Shown: piece after piece, positions 57,644 through 64,000 of the stretch
Position numbering within the stretch: position 1 is the stretch's first letter
Layout: the number at the start of each line of letters is the position of its first letter
Assembly: GCF_018130165.1 (NCBI RefSeq)
Contig: NZ_JAFCLZ010000001.1
Location: 1-64,000, forward strand
Origin: Bradyrhizobium sp. JYMT SZCCT0180
Lineage (GTDB): Bacteria > Pseudomonadota > Alphaproteobacteria > Rhizobiales > Xanthobacteraceae
DNA length: 64,000 nt
Direction: 5' to 3'
Notes under the pieces: model-generated
The model's input: only the letters and a program-made list of their open reading frames with translations
Told to the model about the DNA's origin: nothing
The model's database searches: none
Position numbers and translations under genes: made by a program

Positions 57644-58924
57644 TCAGGCCGCCGCCCGCGCGCGCATTTCGTCGCTGGGCTTGACGTCCCGCGAGCGGCT
57701 GTAGATCGCAACGGCCAGGATCAGCACCACGGTGAGCACGCCGAACAGGGCGCGGTAGGCGGTCTCGGAGCGGGCGCCATCGGCGAGAGGCTCGAACCCG
57801 CCGACGATGAGGCCCGACAAGGTCTGCATGCAGGCGACGCCCAGCATCACGGCGGTGTTGATGGTCGCAATGCCGCGCCCGATCAGCCGGTCCGGGAAGA
57901 TGCCGCGGCCATGCGTCATCACCATGGTGCTGGAGGCGCTGAAGAAACCGATGGCGACGATGGCGCCGACGGGCACCCAGACGGGCGGGCGGGAAGCGAG
58001 CGCCAGCGTCGCAAGCATGGATATGGTCACCATGGTGCCGCCGATGGCGATCCATTTGCGCGTGTCGAGCACGCGGTCGAGGGGGCCGAAGGCGACGATG
58101 CCAAGCTGGTAGGTGATCACGGCTGCCAGCAGCACGTTGCCGGCCTCGATCGGGCTCATGCCATACACCTCGCGCAGGAACGAACCACCCCACAAGCCCT
58201 GAACGGTGAAGGTGCAGGCATAGTTGCAGAAATTCATCGCCAGGATCGGCCGGAGGCGCGGGTTGCCCAGCACCTCGATCAGGCCTTGCAGCATCTGGCG
58301 TGGCGGCTCCGGGGTACGGTCGAGAAACGGATGGCCGGGCGGCGCGTCGCGCACCACCAGCCACACGGCGATGGTGGCGAGCGCGATGAAGACGACGACG
58401 GCGCCGAACACGGCGCGCCAGCCGACGGCCCCCGAGGCCCATGCCAGCGGCGTGGTGGCGAAGAGATTGCCGAGCAGTCCGATCGACAGCACCATGGCGG
58501 TGAGCGTGGAAAAACGATCCGGTGGAAACCAGCGCGAGATCACCACCATGCTGCCGATCAGCATGACGCCGAAGCCGGCGCCCATCAGGACGCGGCCGGT
58601 GAGCAGAACCGGCCAGCTCGGCGCCAGCGTAAAGATCGCGGCGCCTGTCGTGGCGAGGATCAGCATGCTGGCTACGGTGCGCCGCGGGCCGAAATGGTCG
58701 AACAGAAGGCCGCAGGGGATCTGCATCGCGGCGAAGCCGAAGAAGAATGCGCCGGTCAGCGCGCCCAACGCTTCCGGTCCGATGGCGAGGTCGCGCATCA
58801 GGTCGAGGCCGATGGTGACATTGGCGGCGCGGAAGAAATGACTGGCGACATAGGCCATGGCCAAGGTCGCGACGATGATCAGGCCCCGGCGGTGGGCAAA
58901 AGGGCGCCGCAACGCGGAGCTCAT
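57644..58924 (-). CDS. MFS transporter
   Basis: This 426-residue protein has about twelve hydrophobic segments. Motif A is PCGLLFDHFGPRRTVASM near residues 55-72, shortened from the consensus. GRVLMGAGFGVMLIGSMVVISRWFPPDRFS is a typical segment 4-5 loop (quoted as VISRWFPPDRFS). Its layout resembles anion or organic-acid transporters of the family, but no substrate is evident. I set the ATG at 58924; an earlier in-frame start would add 18 residues. It is divergent from a TctC gene. Confidence 0.87.
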   Translation of the reverse strand: MSSALRRPFAHRRGLIIVATLAMAYVASHFFRAANVTIGLDLMRDLAIGPEALGALTGAFFFGFAAMQIPCGLLFDHFGPRRTVASMLILATTGAAIFTLAPSWPVLLTGRVLMGAGFGVMLIGSMVVISRWFPPDRFSTLTAMVLSIGLLGNLFATTPLAWASGAVGWRAVFGAVVVFIALATIAVWLVVRDAPPGHPFLDRTPEPPRQMLQGLIEVLGNPRLRPILAMNFCNYACTFTVQGLWGGSFLREVYGMSPIEAGNVLLAAVITYQLGIVAFGPLDRVLDTRKWIAIGGTMVTISMLATLALASRPPVWVPVGAIVAIGFFSASSTMVMTHGRGIFPDRLIGRGIATINTAVMLGVACMQTLSGLIVGGFEPLADGARSETAYRALFGVLTVVLILAVAIYSRSRDVKPSDEMRARAAA

Positions 58925-59115
58925 CGACTGGGGGGTATCCCTCTTGTTGTTTGTTGCCTGGCAGGCGCTTCCAATCACCGAGCCTATGCGGCCTTGGCAG
59001 GCAGTTCAAGGTCAGGCCGATGGTTGGCCGTCATCCACGGCTCCGCGCCGGGCTTGCGGTGAAATGAGGCCACCCATAAGAACGTGGATCGACATCGCTG
59101 GAGGGAGGCAATCTG

Positions 59116-60117
59116 GTGCTTAGGCTCTCACATCGTCGCAATGTCATGAAGGCCACCCTTGCATCAGCCATCGCCTTCGCAGGCCCGCTGGTGGCAAGCG
59201 CGGTCGTGCATGCCGCCGAGTTTCCAGCGCGCAGCATCACGCTCATTGTCCCCTACCCGGCCGGCGGCGGCGTCGACGCCATGGCACGCGTGGTGGCGCA
59301 AAAACTGTCGGACGCGTTCCGCCAGACCGTGACGGTCGACAACCGCGGCGGTGGCGGAGGAACCATCGGTACCCGCGCCGTGGCGCGCGCCGCGCCTGAT
59401 GGCTACACGCTGCTGCTGGGCCACACCGGCACCCTCTCCATCAACCCCAGCCTCTACACCAAGCTCGGCATGGACCCGCGCAAGGATTTTGCGCCGATCG
59501 GTCTCGTCGCGTCGATGCCGGTTGCCCTGCTCGCGCACCCGTCGTTCTCAGCCAAGACGGTTGCTGAAACGATCGCGCTCGCAAAAAAGGAGCCGGGCAA
59601 ACTCAATATCGGCACATCGCCGGTCGGCACCGGCGGCTACATGTGCGCGGAACTGTTCAAGGCCGAATCCGGTATCGATGCCGCGATCATTCCCTACAAG
59701 GGCACTGCGCCCGTCATGAACGACCTGCTCGGCGGCCATGTGCCTGTCGCGTTCGGCGTGCTGCCGCCGGCGCTCGGCAATATCGCAGCCGGCCAGTTGC
59801 GCGCCATCGCCGTCACCAGCAAGGCGCGCTTCTCGCTACTACCTGACGTGCCGACATTCGACGAGTCGGGGATGCCTGGCTTCGAAGCCGTGCTGCATTA
59901 CGGGCTGCTCGCGCCGTCAGGCACGCCGCCTGAGATCGTCGAACTCCTCAGCGCCGAGCTGCGCAAACTTGTCAGCGATCCGGAGGTGCAGAAACGCATC
60001 CGCCTCGAAGGCGGCGATCCCCTGGCCTCGACGCCGGCCGAATACGCCGACGACATCGACAAGGAAGAGAAGAAGTGGAGCAAGCTCGTTCACCAGCTCG
60101 GGCTGAAGGTGGAGTAG
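59116..60117 (+). CDS. TctC-type periplasmic binding protein
   Basis: This 333-residue protein has a signal peptide (ATLASAIAFAGPLVASAVVHA), then FPARSITLIVPYPAGGGVDA, VDNRGGGGGTIGTRAVARA, and IGTSPVGTGGYMCAELF with IPYKGTAPVMNDLLGG. These are the standard TctC/Bug motifs. It starts with GTG after GGAGGGAGG. The TctA and TctB membrane proteins are absent. Its divergent neighbour is an MFS transporter. Confidence 0.9.
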   Translation: MLRLSHRRNVMKATLASAIAFAGPLVASAVVHAAEFPARSITLIVPYPAGGGVDAMARVVAQKLSDAFRQTVTVDNRGGGGGTIGTRAVARAAPDGYTLLLGHTGTLSINPSLYTKLGMDPRKDFAPIGLVASMPVALLAHPSFSAKTVAETIALAKKEPGKLNIGTSPVGTGGYMCAELFKAESGIDAAIIPYKGTAPVMNDLLGGHVPVAFGVLPPALGNIAAGQLRAIAVTSKARFSLLPDVPTFDESGMPGFEAVLHYGLLAPSGTPPEIVELLSAELRKLVSDPEVQKRIRLEGGDPLASTPAEYADDIDKEEKKWSKLVHQLGLKVE

Positions 60118-60168
60118 CGGCGGGCTCTGGAGCGGGATGAGCTTAGGGCAGCAACCGCGAAGGAAGTG

Positions 60169-60296
60169 CGCTCCCTCTCCCGCTCTTGCGGGGGAGGGTT
60201 GGGGTGGGGGCTCTCTCCGCGAGTCATCGTGTGGAGAGAGCCCCCACCCGGCGCTTCGCGCCGACCTCCCCCGCAAGCGGGAGAGGTGCAGCGAGC
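60169..60296. repeat. Long palindromic repeat, CTCCCGCTTGCGGG family, copy 2
   Basis: It runs from CGCTCCCTCTCCCGCTCTTG to CCCCGCAAGCGGGAGAGGTG, with a GTGGGGGCTCTCTCC and GGAGAGAGCCCCCAC inner pair. It lies between the convergent TctC and metallo-hydrolase genes and is in the opposite order to the copy at 47529-47660. Confidence 0.88.
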
Positions 60297-60326
60297 CCGA
60301 CGCTAGACCGTCTCACCGACCACCCA

Positions 60327-61319
60327 TCAAATATTGGGATTCCACATCACCGGAATCTCCCGATAACCGCTGCCGACTTTCTCGACATGCGCCAGCGACG
60401 GGAACGGGTAGTGAAAGCCCTGCACCCGCATCTTGTCGGCCGCCAGCATGTCGTAAACCTTGCGGCGGGTCGCTTCCGCCATCGCCGGGTCCTGATCGTA
60501 GAAGACGTGCCAGTCGGGATGCCGGACGAACAGGAACGGCACGTGGGTGACATCGGATTGCACGTAGACGGAATCCGAGCCTGAAGCGATCACGAACGAG
60601 CTATGGCCGGGCGAGTGCCCGGGCGTACCCTGCGCGGTGACGCCGGGAATCACTTCCTTGCCTCCCTCATAGGTTCTCACACGCTTCAAAGCCTCCGGTG
60701 TGAAGACCCGCCGCGCATTCTTGAAGACGCCCTCGATACGGCCCTTGGGGGCGCGACTCATTTCGCCGTCGTCCATCCAGTACTGGTGCTCCCTGGCGGG
60801 CACCAGGATCTCGGCGTTCGGATAGGTCAGTGAATTGTCGTCCATCAGGAGGCCGTTCACGTGGTCGCCGTGATAGTGCGAGATGATCACGACGTCGACA
60901 GCGTTGCGGTCGATGCCCGCGGCCGCAAGGTTGGTCACGAACTGGCCGGCGGTGCCATTGCTCTTCTTGTAATTGCTCTCGCCGGTGCCGGTATCGATGA
61001 TGGCCAGCTTCGATCCGGTGTTGATGGCGATCGGGTTGTACGGCGTGGTCATGTCCTTTTCCATGAAGACCTCGGCGAGCGCGGCGTTCACCACATCCTT
61101 CTTGATGTTGGTGACGTGATCCTCCGCCATCTTGAAGCGGTTGACGCCGTCGGTCGCCACCGTCACCTCGATGCTGCCGATCTTGTAGCGGTACCAGCCG
61201 GCGGTCTGCTTGCCCGCTGGCGGCGTGGCGGCGCGAACTGGCTGATTGAACGGCAGGCTCGTGGCTGCTGCCGCGCCTGCGGCAGCCGACAACAGATCGC
61301 GGCGCGTGAAAGCCGTCAT
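60327..61319 (-). CDS. Tat-exported metallo-beta-lactamase-fold hydrolase
   Basis: This 330-residue protein has a twin-arginine signal (FTRRDLLSAAAGAAAATSL). The metallo-beta-lactamase fold follows, with the metal motif VVIISHYHGDHVNGLLMDD (HxHxDH) at about 148-153, and further ligands in GHSPGHSSFVI and the final HYPFPSLAHVE region. IIDTGTGESNYKKSNG is a typical opening strand. Two metal ions are expected. Members of this group include lactonases and other hydrolases; the substrate is unknown. It is divergent from the double-glycine peptide gene. Confidence 0.9.
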   Translation of the reverse strand: MTAFTRRDLLSAAAGAAAATSLPFNQPVRAATPPAGKQTAGWYRYKIGSIEVTVATDGVNRFKMAEDHVTNIKKDVVNAALAEVFMEKDMTTPYNPIAINTGSKLAIIDTGTGESNYKKSNGTAGQFVTNLAAAGIDRNAVDVVIISHYHGDHVNGLLMDDNSLTYPNAEILVPAREHQYWMDDGEMSRAPKGRIEGVFKNARRVFTPEALKRVRTYEGGKEVIPGVTAQGTPGHSPGHSSFVIASGSDSVYVQSDVTHVPFLFVRHPDWHVFYDQDPAMAEATRRKVYDMLAADKMRVQGFHYPFPSLAHVEKVGSGYREIPVMWNPNI

Positions 61320-61582
61320 TGGCGTCTCCCCTCAATTATTTATCCCGGGATTTGGCTCCCGAATTGGCGTGAATACTCCTGATTTTTGGGACCTTCCGCA
61401 AGCCGAAGCCGGAGCGAAATCTTCGAAGCCGGCCGGTGCGGGAGCTACCCGGCCCCGCATTTCCTCGCCCGCCCCCGCCTGTCACCTGGGGAACAGCGCA
61501 CCGGCGCGGCAGCAGGCATTGTTCTCCTCACCGGACAGCGGACGCGATGGTCGCGCCGCCCGGAGCAAAGGGAGATACTGCG

Positions 61583-61753
61583 ATGAATACCAGGATCAGG
61601 AATGCCGGTACCCTCGACACGCGCGCACTTGCCGACCACGAACTCGAAGCCGTCACCGGCGGCAAGGCCACCTACTACCAAATGGGCGGCCATTGGTACA
61701 TTGTCGGCCACAACAAGTACGGCCAGTCCACCGGTGTGACCCGGGTTACCTGA
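61583..61753 (+). CDS. Small double-glycine-leader peptide (bacteriocin/RiPP-like)
   Basis: This 56-residue peptide starts with ATG after GGAG. Residues 16-27 read LADHELEAVTGG, which fits the double-glycine leader of peptides processed and exported by C39-peptidase ABC transporters. Cleavage after Gly27 would release a 29-residue core rich in Gly, Tyr and His with no Cys (KATYYQMGGHWYIVG opens it). No transporter or modifying enzyme is nearby. A hairpin terminator follows the stop. It could be a bacteriocin precursor, a signalling peptide, or a small protein with a chance match. Confidence 0.6.
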   Translation: MNTRIRNAGTLDTRALADHELEAVTGGKATYYQMGGHWYIVGHNKYGQSTGVTRVT

Positions 61754-61790
61754 TGGACCCTGCCGGATCTGCAAAGCAAACCGGCAATGC

Positions 61791-61820
61791 AAAGGGCGGC
61801 CGCAAGGTCGCCCTTTCTTC
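61791..61820. terminator. Intrinsic terminator after the peptide gene
   Basis: The stem AAAGGGCGGCC pairs with GGTCGCCCTTT around GCAA, with one mismatch, followed by TTTC. It lies between the peptide gene and the convergent dehydrogenase gene. Confidence 0.8.
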
Positions 61821-61848
61821 GTTTCGGATCGCTGCGACGGATAGCGCG

Positions 61849-62925
61849 TCAGTCGTTGGCGCCGTGGATGGAGGCGACGACCGCGGCCGTGACCTCGTTG
61901 GTCCTCGCCTTGCCGCCGAGGTCCGGCGTGTGAAAGCGGGGATCGGCCGTGACACGCTCGACCGCCTGCATCAACCGCGTCGCAGCCGCTGGCTCGCCGA
62001 GATGCTCCAGCATCATCACCGATGACCAGAACGTCCCGACGGGATTGGCGATGCCTTTGCCGATGATGTCGAAGGCCGAGCCGTGTATAGGCTCGAACAT
62101 CGAGGGATAGGTCCGCTCCGGATTGAGGTTCGCGGTCGGCGCGATGCCGAGCGAGCCGGCGAGCGCGGCCGCGAGATCCGACAGCACGTCGGCGTGCAAA
62201 TTGGTGGCCACCACGGTATCGATCGTCTCCGGCTTCATGACCATGCGCATGGTCATCGCATCGACCAGCATCTTGTCCCAGGTCACGTCCTTGAACTCGG
62301 CCGCGATCTCGGTCGCGATCTCGTCCCACATCACCATGGCGTGGCGCTGGGCGTTGGATTTGGTCACGACGGTGAGCAGCTTGCGCGGCCGCGACTGTGC
62401 GAGCTTGAAGGCGAAGCGCATGATGCGCTCGACGCCGGACCGGGTCAGGATCGAGACGTCGGTTGCGACTTCGAGCGGCAAGCCCTTGTGGACGCGGCCG
62501 CCGACGCCGGCATATTCGCCTTCCGAGTTTTCGCGGACGATCACCCAGTCGAGCTCCTTGCCGTGCACGTTGCGCAGCGGGCTGGTGATGCCGGGCAGGA
62601 TCCGCGTCGGGCGGACGTTGGCGTATTGATCGAACGGCTGGCAGATGGCGAGCCGCAGGCCCCACAGCGTGATGTGATCAGGCACATCGGGCGCGCCGGC
62701 CGAGCCGAACAGGATCGCGTCGTGATTCCTGATCTGGTCGCGGCCATCCTCCGGCATCATGATGCCGTGCTTCTTGTAGTACTCAGATCCCCAGTCGAAA
62801 TGATCGACCTTGAACTTGAAGTTGCCGTCGCGCTGGGCCAGCGCGTGCAGCACCTCGACACCTGCGGCAATGACTTCGGTGCCGATCCCGTCGCCCGGGA
62901 TGGCTGCTATGGCGTACGTCTTCAT
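61849..62925 (-). CDS. Tartrate dehydrogenase/isopropylmalate-dehydrogenase-type decarboxylase
   Basis: This 358-residue protein is a beta-decarboxylating dehydrogenase of the isocitrate/isopropylmalate family. It starts YAIAAIPGDGIGTEVIAAG and has WVIVRENSEGEYAGVGGRVH, the Tyr-less TVVTKSNAQRHAMVMWD (catalytic Lys), VDAMTMRMVMKPE with the metal Asp later in NLHADVLSDLAAALAGSLG, and PIHGSAFDIIGKGIANPVG. The ENSEGEYAG and VDAMTMRMV runs fit tartrate/malate dehydrogenases better than LeuB. It is followed upstream on the same strand by a TctC protein, so uptake and oxidation of a C4 hydroxy-acid is likely but not proven. Confidence 0.88.
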   Translation of the reverse strand: MKTYAIAAIPGDGIGTEVIAAGVEVLHALAQRDGNFKFKVDHFDWGSEYYKKHGIMMPEDGRDQIRNHDAILFGSAGAPDVPDHITLWGLRLAICQPFDQYANVRPTRILPGITSPLRNVHGKELDWVIVRENSEGEYAGVGGRVHKGLPLEVATDVSILTRSGVERIMRFAFKLAQSRPRKLLTVVTKSNAQRHAMVMWDEIATEIAAEFKDVTWDKMLVDAMTMRMVMKPETIDTVVATNLHADVLSDLAAALAGSLGIAPTANLNPERTYPSMFEPIHGSAFDIIGKGIANPVGTFWSSVMMLEHLGEPAAATRLMQAVERVTADPRFHTPDLGGKARTNEVTAAVVASIHGAND

Positions 62926-62991
62926 CGATTGGTCTCCGGATTGCGAATGTCGTTGTCAGCTTTGGGTGACCGCACGCTTGCGGCGGCGGGT

Positions 62992-63981
62992 TCAATTTCC
63001 TTTGGCACCTGCAGCCTTGATCACGGCACCCCAGCGCGGCACTTCGGCTGTCAGATGCGCCTTGAGCGCCGCCGGCGTCGCCAGCTCCGCCGCGACCGGC
63101 TCGGTGCCGAGATTGGCAAACCGCTCGATCACCTTGGGGTCTTTCAGCGCGGCCTGAAGGGCTGCCACGAGCTTGTCGGTGGCGTCTTTGGGCAATCCCT
63201 TCGGGGCCCACAAGGCGTGCCAGGCCGAGGCCTCGAAACCCTTGACGGCGCCACTATCGAGCGTCGGCAGGTCGGGCAATGACGAGACCTTGGCTTTGGT
63301 CGTGACCGCAAAGCCCTTGATCTTGCCTTCCTTGATCTGGTTGGTGGTGTTGGTGGTCTGGTCGCACATCACGTCGAACTGGCCGCTGAGCAGGTCGTTC
63401 ATGGCCGGCCCGGTGCCGCGATAGGGAATCCCGTTCATCTGCACGCCGAGCTCCTTCATCAGCATCAGCATGCAAAGATGCGAGGCGGAACCGATGCCGG
63501 CATGTCCGTAGACGGCCTTTTCGCCGCTCGCGCGAATCCACGCCACGTACTCGGTCACATTGTTGGCAGCAAGTGTCGGCTTCGACACCAGGGTCATCGG
63601 CACGTCGGTGATGCGGCCGAGGTGGTCGAAATCGTCGACGACATCATATTTGAGGGAGTCGTAGAGCGCGGGCGCGGTGGCGTGCGCGATGTGCCAGATC
63701 GCGAGCGTGTAACCGTCGGCGGCCGACTTCGACACGCGCGCCATGCCGAGCGTACCACCGGCGCCGCCGATATTTTCGACCAGGATGGTCTGGCCGAGGC
63801 TTCGGCCCATCGATTCCGCGATGAGGCGGGCCACGGTGTCGGTCGGCCCTCCGGCCGCCGCCGGAACGATGATGGTGATCGGTTTTGTCGGAAAGGCTGT
63901 CTGCCCGAAAGCGGGGTGTGACGCCCATAGCGACGCGGCCGCGAGGGCGCCGGAAAGGATCGTGCGACGATTGAACCGCAT
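62992..63981 (-). CDS. TctC-type periplasmic binding protein
   Basis: This 329-residue protein has an RR-type signal (RFNRRTILSGALAAASLWASHPAFG). Then come FPTKPITIIVPAAAGGPTDTV, VENIGGAGGTLGMARVSKS, and YGHAGIGSASHLCMLM with GIPYRGTGPAMNDLLSG. These are TctC/Bug motifs. It ends 66 bp before the dehydrogenase gene on the same strand, which suggests a two-gene operon for a dicarboxylate or tartrate-like ligand. TctA and TctB are not seen; sequence beyond the window could hold them. Confidence 0.9.
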   Translation of the reverse strand: MRFNRRTILSGALAAASLWASHPAFGQTAFPTKPITIIVPAAAGGPTDTVARLIAESMGRSLGQTILVENIGGAGGTLGMARVSKSAADGYTLAIWHIAHATAPALYDSLKYDVVDDFDHLGRITDVPMTLVSKPTLAANNVTEYVAWIRASGEKAVYGHAGIGSASHLCMLMLMKELGVQMNGIPYRGTGPAMNDLLSGQFDVMCDQTTNTTNQIKEGKIKGFAVTTKAKVSSLPDLPTLDSGAVKGFEASAWHALWAPKGLPKDATDKLVAALQAALKDPKVIERFANLGTEPVAAELATPAALKAHLTAEVPRWGAVIKAAGAKGN

Positions 63982-64000
63982 TGGGTCGCTCCCTGAAGAA

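What the first reader, a model, noticed from the sequence alone, without database searches (positions are those of the whole stretch)
61583..61753. Uncatalogued small peptide with a double-glycine leader
Residues 16-27 (LADHELEAVTGG) match the leader consensus of bacteriocin and related exported peptides. The 29-residue core lacks Cys and is rich in Tyr, Gly and His. The gene has a good ribosome-binding site and its own terminator, so it is probably expressed. Its transporter is not in the window.
Basis: partly seen in the sequence, partly recalled or inferred. Interest (0 to 1): 0.62.

Follow-up and report, generated by a model that had tools for sequence, protein, structure and literature searches.

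The report
cAMP-controlled small secreted peptide in Bradyrhizobium
The small gene is real and most likely makes a 29-residue peptide that the bacterium cuts from its leader and exports; it belongs to a scattered set of very different small peptides that share one promoter type, probably switched on by a cAMP-sensing regulator, a link we did not find described.

Summary
In detail: window 61583-61753 (+) encodes a 56-aa peptide with a double-glycine leader and a Cys-free 29-aa core. It has homologues in Bradyrhizobium and Methylobacterium; the core is under purifying selection and is better conserved than the leader.

New here is the promoter. A 16-bp dyad at 61480-61495 matches the published consensus of the Sinorhizobium cAMP receptor Clr, placed as at class II promoters. 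A promoter model built without this peptide family finds one site in the window, this one (E 5e-18). In this genome 12 promoter-model matches precede 10 double-glycine peptides (one without the dyad), one RTX gene and one other ORF. A Clr-like regulator gene lies on another contig beside FecR and CHASE2-cyclase genes, another such peptide and an NHLM exporter with C39 protease. Regulator and exact dyad co-occur in 5 of 195 genomes; a sixth has the dyad alone. In other genomes of the family 16 of 25 double-glycine ORFs carry CRP-type boxes.

Activation, cleavage and export are inferred; what the peptide does is unknown. In a relative a different peptide gene occupies this locus.

The parts
61480..61495 (+). 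Clr/CRP-type 16-bp dyad TGTCACCTGGGGAACA, presumed activator site
   Evidence: Only match in the window to the published Clr consensus HGTYHCNNNNGRWACA (0.24 expected by shuffling); TGT-N10-ACA at -91 to -106 in 21 of 21 upstream regions, most of them chosen for a similar box
61517..61522 (+). presumed -10 hexamer CATTGT
   Evidence: Fixed distance from the dyad; A at position 2 and T at position 6 in 19 of 19 and 14 of 14 promoters (10 of the 14 are also in the 19). Inferred, not mapped
61529..61529 (+). predicted transcription start (dyad centre then at -41.5)
   Evidence: Inference from the alignment
61538..61559 (+). conserved 5' UTR stem-loop (CGCGA TGG TCGCG), role unknown
   Evidence: Sequence conserved; folds locally, but z only -1.3 for the region
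61570..61574 (+). ribosome-binding site GGGAG
   Evidence: Sequence
61583..61753 (+). double-glycine precursor peptide gene, 56 aa
61583..61663 (+). leader, 27 aa, ending in GG
   Evidence: GG in 7 of 7 aligned sequences
61664..61750 (+). core, 29 aa, predicted three-stranded beta fold
   Evidence: AlphaFold strands 29-34, 37-43, 49-55, pLDDT about 75-79 there, 61.8 overall
61791..61816 (+). terminator-like hairpin
61430..61843 (+). segment that differs in genome G085, where a different peptide gene with its own promoter lies at this locus; ends approximate

Best explanation
A small exported peptide whose transcription is switched on by a cyclic-nucleotide receptor of the Clr type. Steps: (1) a CHASE2-cyclase makes cAMP (perhaps cGMP) on an unknown signal; (2) the Clr-like regulator binds the dyad at 61480-61495 and recruits RNA polymerase as at class II CRP promoters; (3) the 56-aa precursor is made; (4) a C39-protease ABC exporter, most likely the NHLM trio near the regulator, cuts after Gly27 and exports the 29-aa core. 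Shown by computation: gene, selection, shared promoter, co-distribution of regulator and box, presence of exporter genes. Inferred: cyclase activity, binding, activation, cleavage, export. The activity of the core is unknown; I lean slightly to a bacteriocin-like role (about 0.4) over a signal (about 0.35).
For: Hold-out promoter model: one match in 64 kb, at this gene, E 5.4e-18; 12 at E<=0.01 in the whole genome. Of 54 matches with E<1e-3 in the five regulator-bearing genomes (150 candidates scored per genome, so a lower bound) 43 precede double-glycine ORFs (38 by pattern, 5 by eye), 7 RTX-like genes, 4 another or no ORF; 19 of the 54 were in the training set. The 15 other genomes, without the regulator, have one match under 1e-3 (G159, 9.9e-4, no such ORF) and otherwise none under 0.0119. 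Regulator in 5 of 195 genus genomes at E<=1e-40; exact dyad in the same 5 plus G159. Best PDB relative is 7pza/7pzb, whose residue numbers agree with those given for S. meliloti Clr; the five base-contacting residues named there (Q184, S194, R195, K197, N199) are kept. 46 of 50 collected boxes fit the Clr consensus on one strand or the other. NHLM ABC1/C39, ABC2 and HlyD score over their cut-offs. The G000 cyclase has CHASE2 and cyclase domains. In Methylobacterium sp. WSM2598 a homologous peptide lies beside FecR, CHASE2-cyclase and CRP-family genes.
Against: No expression, binding or secretion data. The five genomes may be one clade, so co-distribution is not five independent events. The window's left half-site (TGTCA) is not the full TGTTC form. 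The strict Clr consensus is expected 0.24 times per window by chance, and 22 of 100 shuffles have at least one. No Clr box was found in C10:112-149 kb except before the C10 peptide; a perfect CRP-type box lies about 0.9 kb upstream of the hlyD start, so the exporter may answer to another regulator. The exporter occurs in 57 of 195 genomes, far more than the regulator, and G000 has other C39 ORFs, so the cognate exporter is uncertain.
Confidence: 0.74

Rival explanations
1. It is a class II microcin-like bacteriocin: a toxic core exported to kill related bacteria, with self-protection encoded elsewhere.
For: Double-glycine leader, C39 exporters in the genome, many different cores under one promoter type, some Pro-rich, a different peptide gene at this locus in a relative.
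Against: No immunity-gene candidate seen beside it: neighbours are a metallo-beta-lactamase-fold gene and a dehydrogenase gene (named from my reading). The core is conserved across two genera (21 of 29 identical to M. nonmethylotrophicum with synonymous sites near saturation), unlike a fast-changing toxin.
Confidence: 0.4
2. It is an extracellular signal to kin or to a plant: a conserved exported peptide read by a receptor.
For: Core conserved more than leader; Clr, CHASE2-cyclases and a FecR-domain protein control infection of legume roots in S. meliloti, where secretion of an effector is discussed (PMC5498481, passages).
Against: No receptor candidate known to me. No NodA match in the five genomes, though that search rang in no control and so does not show absence.
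Confidence: 0.35
3. The dyad is the site of another regulator, and the neighbouring Clr-like protein is not the activator.
For: Only computation links them; the exporter lacks the box; the window box has one variant half-site.
Against: Co-distribution in 5 genomes, kept DNA-contact residues, a box before the peptide next to the regulator gene itself, class II spacing.
Confidence: 0.15
4. Chance ORF, not a gene.
For: Short; no family over cut-off.
Against: Homologues under purifying selection and a shared promoter found by a model blind to this family.
Confidence: 0.01

Closest known systems
Clr (cAMP/cGMP receptor) regulon of Sinorhizobium meliloti (PMC10127613, PMC5498481; passages read)
   Same: Box consensus, DNA-contact residues, five of six pocket residues, box-to-start spacing close to the reported -42 to -76; FecR-domain and CHASE2-cyclase partners occur there too; 8 of 20 confirmed targets there are proteins under 100 aa
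   Different: Here the regulator lies near a peptide exporter and its boxes precede double-glycine peptides and RTX genes; I saw no such targets in the passages read
CHASE2-cyclase/FecR gene clusters (Campylobacterota, PMC9239204; passages read)
   Same: CHASE2-cyclase clustered with a FecR-domain gene
   Different: There with a phosphodiesterase and a TPR gene; no peptide or exporter mentioned in the passages read
NHLM/NHLP bacteriocin export systems (TIGR03794, TIGR03796, TIGR03797)
   Same: All three exporter proteins over cut-off
   Different: Presumed cargo is short double-glycine peptides scattered over the genome; no NHLP-leader match over cut-off in G000
Class II microcins and other double-glycine peptides of Gram-negatives
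   Same: Leader type and C39 exporter in the genome
   Different: No linked exporter at the locus and no immunity gene seen; CRP/Clr-type promoter; core conserved across two genera
CTB family bacteriocins of cyanobacteria (NF038167)
   Same: Weak leader similarity of 4 of 10 sibling peptides (E 0.001-0.007, below cut-off)
   Different: The window peptide itself has no match

Membership tests
Double-glycine leader peptide exported by a C39 ABC transporter | leader ending in GG with the L...EL..V.GG pattern | tested here: met
Double-glycine leader peptide exported by a C39 ABC transporter | C39 exporter in the same genome | tested here: met
Double-glycine leader peptide exported by a C39 ABC transporter | cleavage after GG and secretion | not testable with these tools
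   Needs mass spectrometry
Class II microcin / bacteriocin | linked immunity gene | tested here: inconclusive
   None recognised by reading the ORFs of 58000-64000; no profile search for immunity families was run
Class II microcin / bacteriocin | antibacterial activity | not testable with these tools
   Bench assay
NHLM/NHLP system | exporter trio ABC1, ABC2, HlyD | tested here: met
NHLM/NHLP system | NHLP-type precursor leader | tested here: not met
   Window peptide. Genome G000: two matches at E<=0.1, none over cut-off, in a 224-aa frame; relative G012 has one over cut-off
Clr-type regulon | box HGTYHCNNNNGRWACA upstream | tested here: met
   consensus
Clr-type regulon | regulator with Clr DNA-contact residues | tested here: met
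   Alignment, numbering, residues named
Clr-type regulon | cyclic-nucleotide pocket G85, E86, R95, S96, T140, T141 | tested here: inconclusive
   five of six kept, T141 is Ser here
Clr-type regulon | cAMP-dependent activation of this promoter | not testable with these tools
   Bench assay

The most novel reading that the evidence does not exclude
Double-glycine peptides of Bradyrhizobium and relatives form a cAMP-controlled secreted-peptide regulon: self-contained cassettes (CRP-family box, class II promoter, precursor) scattered over the genome and exchangeable at a locus, all feeding a shared exporter. In the window's lineage box and regulator differ together from the CRP form (TGTGA) found elsewhere in the family, as if switched to the Clr form (TGTYHC).
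Probability: 0.5. Interest if true: 0.78.

Novelty: new variant of a known kind. Interest (0 to 1): 0.64.

Why it matters
To my knowledge (recalled) double-glycine peptides of Gram-negative bacteria are mostly found through their leader or a linked exporter. Here the promoter gives a second handle that finds unlinked members with unrelated cores, and it suggests when they are made: on a cyclic-nucleotide signal. In S. meliloti the same kinds of parts (CHASE2 cyclases, Clr, a FecR-domain protein) restrict root infection by an unknown output, for which that paper discusses secretion of an effector (PMC5498481, passages). A Clr-type regulator lying near a peptide exporter makes 'cAMP controls secreted peptides' a directly testable idea.

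Tried and rejected
Known RNA family in the 5' UTR: no Rfam match at 60300-62950, and the fold is weak. An ECF-type -35 reading of GGAAC was weighed by eye (no call) and dropped for lack of a fitting -10 spacing. A sigma-70 promoter scan found nothing. Of the 14 profile matches at E<=1 in G000, four (C26, C5, C2, C34:212352) lie in a repeated sequence and read as no gene; many of the 150 of 391 genomes with a match there have only weak matches in long ORFs, which I take as chance. The NodA search rang in no control and shows nothing. A regex search for a Crp-type regulator beside the exporter found none in L173-L179 and L181, from genomes without the Clr-like form, so what controls their CRP boxes is open. 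Of 12 exact-dyad sites, G159's has no double-glycine ORF. Of the 25 ORFs, 9 lack a CRP box; 8 of these start within about 310 nt downstream of another such ORF and may be second genes of a unit; several of the 25 are close relatives of one another (for instance L040/L047 and L052/L054/L055), so they are not independent. At those CRP boxes T at -10 position 6 is seen in only 6 of 16 (A at position 2 in 13 of 16). No terminator was found by the scan at the end of the G085 gene, so I do not claim a box-to-terminator exchange. One search aligned some wrong coordinates and was redone. Papers were sought; apart from the papers read in part I judged the listed ones by title and start of abstract, several lists were capped, and none listed describes this system. 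Most subscription papers are not held (for instance Dirix 2004, seen only as a reference in PMC3140520). Outlines with abstracts only were seen of PMC13001267 and PMC13174018.

Full report
Observation. The ORF at 61583-61753 (+) is as described: a 27-residue leader ending in LADHELEAVTGG and a 29-residue core without Cys. It is the only small ORF with a double-glycine leader and a ribosome-binding site that my pattern finds in the 64-kb window. A terminator-like hairpin follows. No Pfam or NCBIfam family reaches its cut-off.

Homologues. The window lies in an 8.04-Mb genome (G000). In 195 genomes of the genus, the own one included, 4 have a match at E<=0.01: G000, G012 (98%), G090 (4 places) and G100. 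G100 has two copies about 4 kb apart that flank the FecR, regulator and cyclase genes described below. In the named collection 6 loci were confirmed: 4 in Bradyrhizobium and 2 in Methylobacterium at 60 and 62% over the matched part. One of them, Bradyrhizobium sp. JYMT SZCCT0428, has the contig length of G012's contig, so I take the two to be one record. Between window and M. nonmethylotrophicum the core keeps 21 of 29 residues while synonymous sites are near saturation (17 of 18.8) and the leader keeps 8 of 27; among 15 Bradyrhizobium pairs core dN/dS is 0.06-0.38 in 14, the other pair having no amino-acid change. Leader figures for pairs with indels are unreliable. So the frame is selected, and the mature part most of all. 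AlphaFold on seven sequences gives a three-stranded beta core of moderate confidence.

Promoter. Upstream regions of the homologues share a dyad, a spaced hexamer and a conserved stem-loop. The exact pattern TGTTCCCYRGGGAACAGCGC occurs in 6 of 195 genomes at 12 sites; downstream are 8 double-glycine peptides with various cores, 3 RTX-type genes, and one site without such an ORF, in G159. The G000 gene matches Pfam's RTX repeat family; the others I call RTX-like from their GGxGxD repeats. In 19 aligned upstream regions the hexamer has A at position 2 and T at position 6 throughout, as at -10 elements, and the dyad centre would lie at -41.5 if transcription starts 7 nt after the hexamer's last base; the same holds in 14 promoters chosen without this peptide family, 10 of which were also among the 19. 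A model from those 14 finds a single match in the window, at 61477-61585, E 5.4e-18, and 12 in the whole genome at E<=0.01, six of them in its training set; five other exporter-bearing genomes gave one weak match (G191, 0.002).

What the promoter controls. The five genomes with the regulator have 54 matches under E 1e-3: G000 12, G012 15, G085 14, G090 8, G100 5. By reading what follows, 43 precede double-glycine ORFs (38 by pattern, 5 by eye), 7 precede RTX-like genes, and 4 precede another or no ORF; 19 of the 54 were in the training set. The other 15 genomes have one match under 1e-3 (G159, 9.9e-4) and otherwise nothing under 0.0119. In G000 the 12 are 10 double-glycine peptides, the RTX gene (C27) and one 93-aa ORF with what looks like a Sec signal (C1:178819). 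One of the 10, C23:74820, matches only the downstream part of the model and carries a CRP-like box instead; C25:69752 has a dyad outside the strict consensus. Cores differ widely.

Regulator. About 1.3 kb from one of these peptides (G000:C10) lies a 232-aa protein with cNMP-binding and Crp-type HTH domains, found at E<=1e-40 in 5 of 195 genomes, G000, G012, G085, G090 and G100, that is, all dyad-bearing genomes except G159. The chance of such overlap is 3e-9 if genomes were independent, which they are not. Its best solved relative is 7pza/7pzb; the residue numbers of that chain agree with those printed for S. meliloti Clr in PMC10127613. That paper and PMC5498481 (passages) give the consensus HGTYHCNNNNGRWACA, and the former the base contacts Q184, S194, R195, K197 and N199; all five residues are kept here, and of six pocket residues only T141 differs (Ser). 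The window box fits the consensus exactly, its only match in the window (0.24 expected), as do 46 of the 50 boxes I collected, counting either strand.

Setting of the regulator. On C10 the order is double-glycine peptide, FecR-domain protein, regulator, cyclase with CHASE2 domain, a cNMP-binding patatin-like protein, NHLM ABC2, ABC1 with C39, and HlyD. No NHLP-type precursor reaches the cut-off in G000, so short double-glycine peptides are the likely cargo. Against a strict link: the exporter is in 57 of 195 genomes, G000 has other C39 ORFs, and the only Clr box in C10:112-149 kb is the one before the peptide, while a perfect CRP-type box lies about 0.9 kb upstream of the hlyD start. In Methylobacterium sp. 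WSM2598 the homologous peptide sits beside FecR, CHASE2-cyclase and CRP-family genes; the recognition helix of the latter reads TTRETVNR, and a CRP-type box TGTGATCCGGATCACG lies upstream of the peptide. CHASE2-cyclase and FecR genes also cluster in Campylobacterota (PMC9239204, passages), so that pairing is known.

Wider rule. In loci fetched by the peptide profile alone (L032-L060), 16 of 25 double-glycine ORFs, all in genomes other than the five, have a CRP-type box (at least 8 of 10 of TGTGA-N6-TCACA) at about -125 to -71, against 2.0% of random pieces; 13 of the 16 have A at -10 position 2 at the same spacing, but only 6 have T at position 6. Several of the 25 are related to each other. 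Of the 9 without a box, 8 may be second genes of a unit. Thus the design seems shared in the family, while the window's lineage pairs it with a Clr-type box and regulator. That this was a switch, and in which direction, is inference.

Exchange at the locus. In G085 the same locus, with flanks about 88% and 96% identical, holds a different peptide gene. Its similarity to other copies of that gene (L088, L074, L135) begins about 5 nt before the box (44-51% before it, 82-89% from box to ATG) and ends some 10 nt before the window flank resumes at 95%; from box to ATG it is 73% identical to the window, and the 50 nt before the box only 52%. So the piece that differs seems to include the promoter; its exact left end is blurred by the shared promoter, and no terminator was found by the scan at its right end. 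The mechanism is unknown.

Judgement. The gene is real; that it is exported and Clr-activated is likely but untested; the function of the core is open. The single parts are known kinds; the combination was not found in the searches listed, which cover an open-access library only.

Noticed in passing
G000:C1:65165 (L031:7166-7342), about 1.2 kb beyond the window: Another double-glycine peptide, core ending with the string LNPQPLPPKVFFSFGR, with a CRP-like box CGTGACCTGGATCACA at -89.
   Followed up: partly
G000:C10:72087-73070: A 924-aa ORF with two C39 peptidase matches, a second possible exporter or protease.
   Followed up: no
G000:C27:33054, G012:C120, G085:C40, G100:C677, G090:C980, G090:C663, G012:C102: RTX or RTX-like genes behind the same promoter as the peptides (Pfam only for the first).
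   Followed up: partly
G085:C14:1215 and G012:C166:5662 (L136, L146): Double-glycine peptides with strongly proline-rich cores that by eye resemble proline-rich antimicrobial peptides.
   Followed up: no
G000:C1:178819: A 93-aa ORF with what looks like a Sec signal behind a good Clr-type box: the one member in G000 that is neither double-glycine nor RTX.
   Followed up: no
G000:C26:18095, C5:211302, C2:78862, C34:212352: A highly similar repeated sequence that mimics the leader profile but reads as no gene.
   Followed up: partly
G000:C10 near 131.2-133.0 kb (L020:1191-3044): A patatin-like protein with a cNMP-binding domain between cyclase and exporter, perhaps a second cyclic-nucleotide output.
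   Followed up: no
G000:C10:140865: A perfect CRP-type box TGTGATGCGTGTCACA about 0.9 kb upstream of the hlyD start of the exporter.
   Followed up: no
G159:C173:16142: An exact dyad without a double-glycine ORF or regulator.
   Followed up: partly
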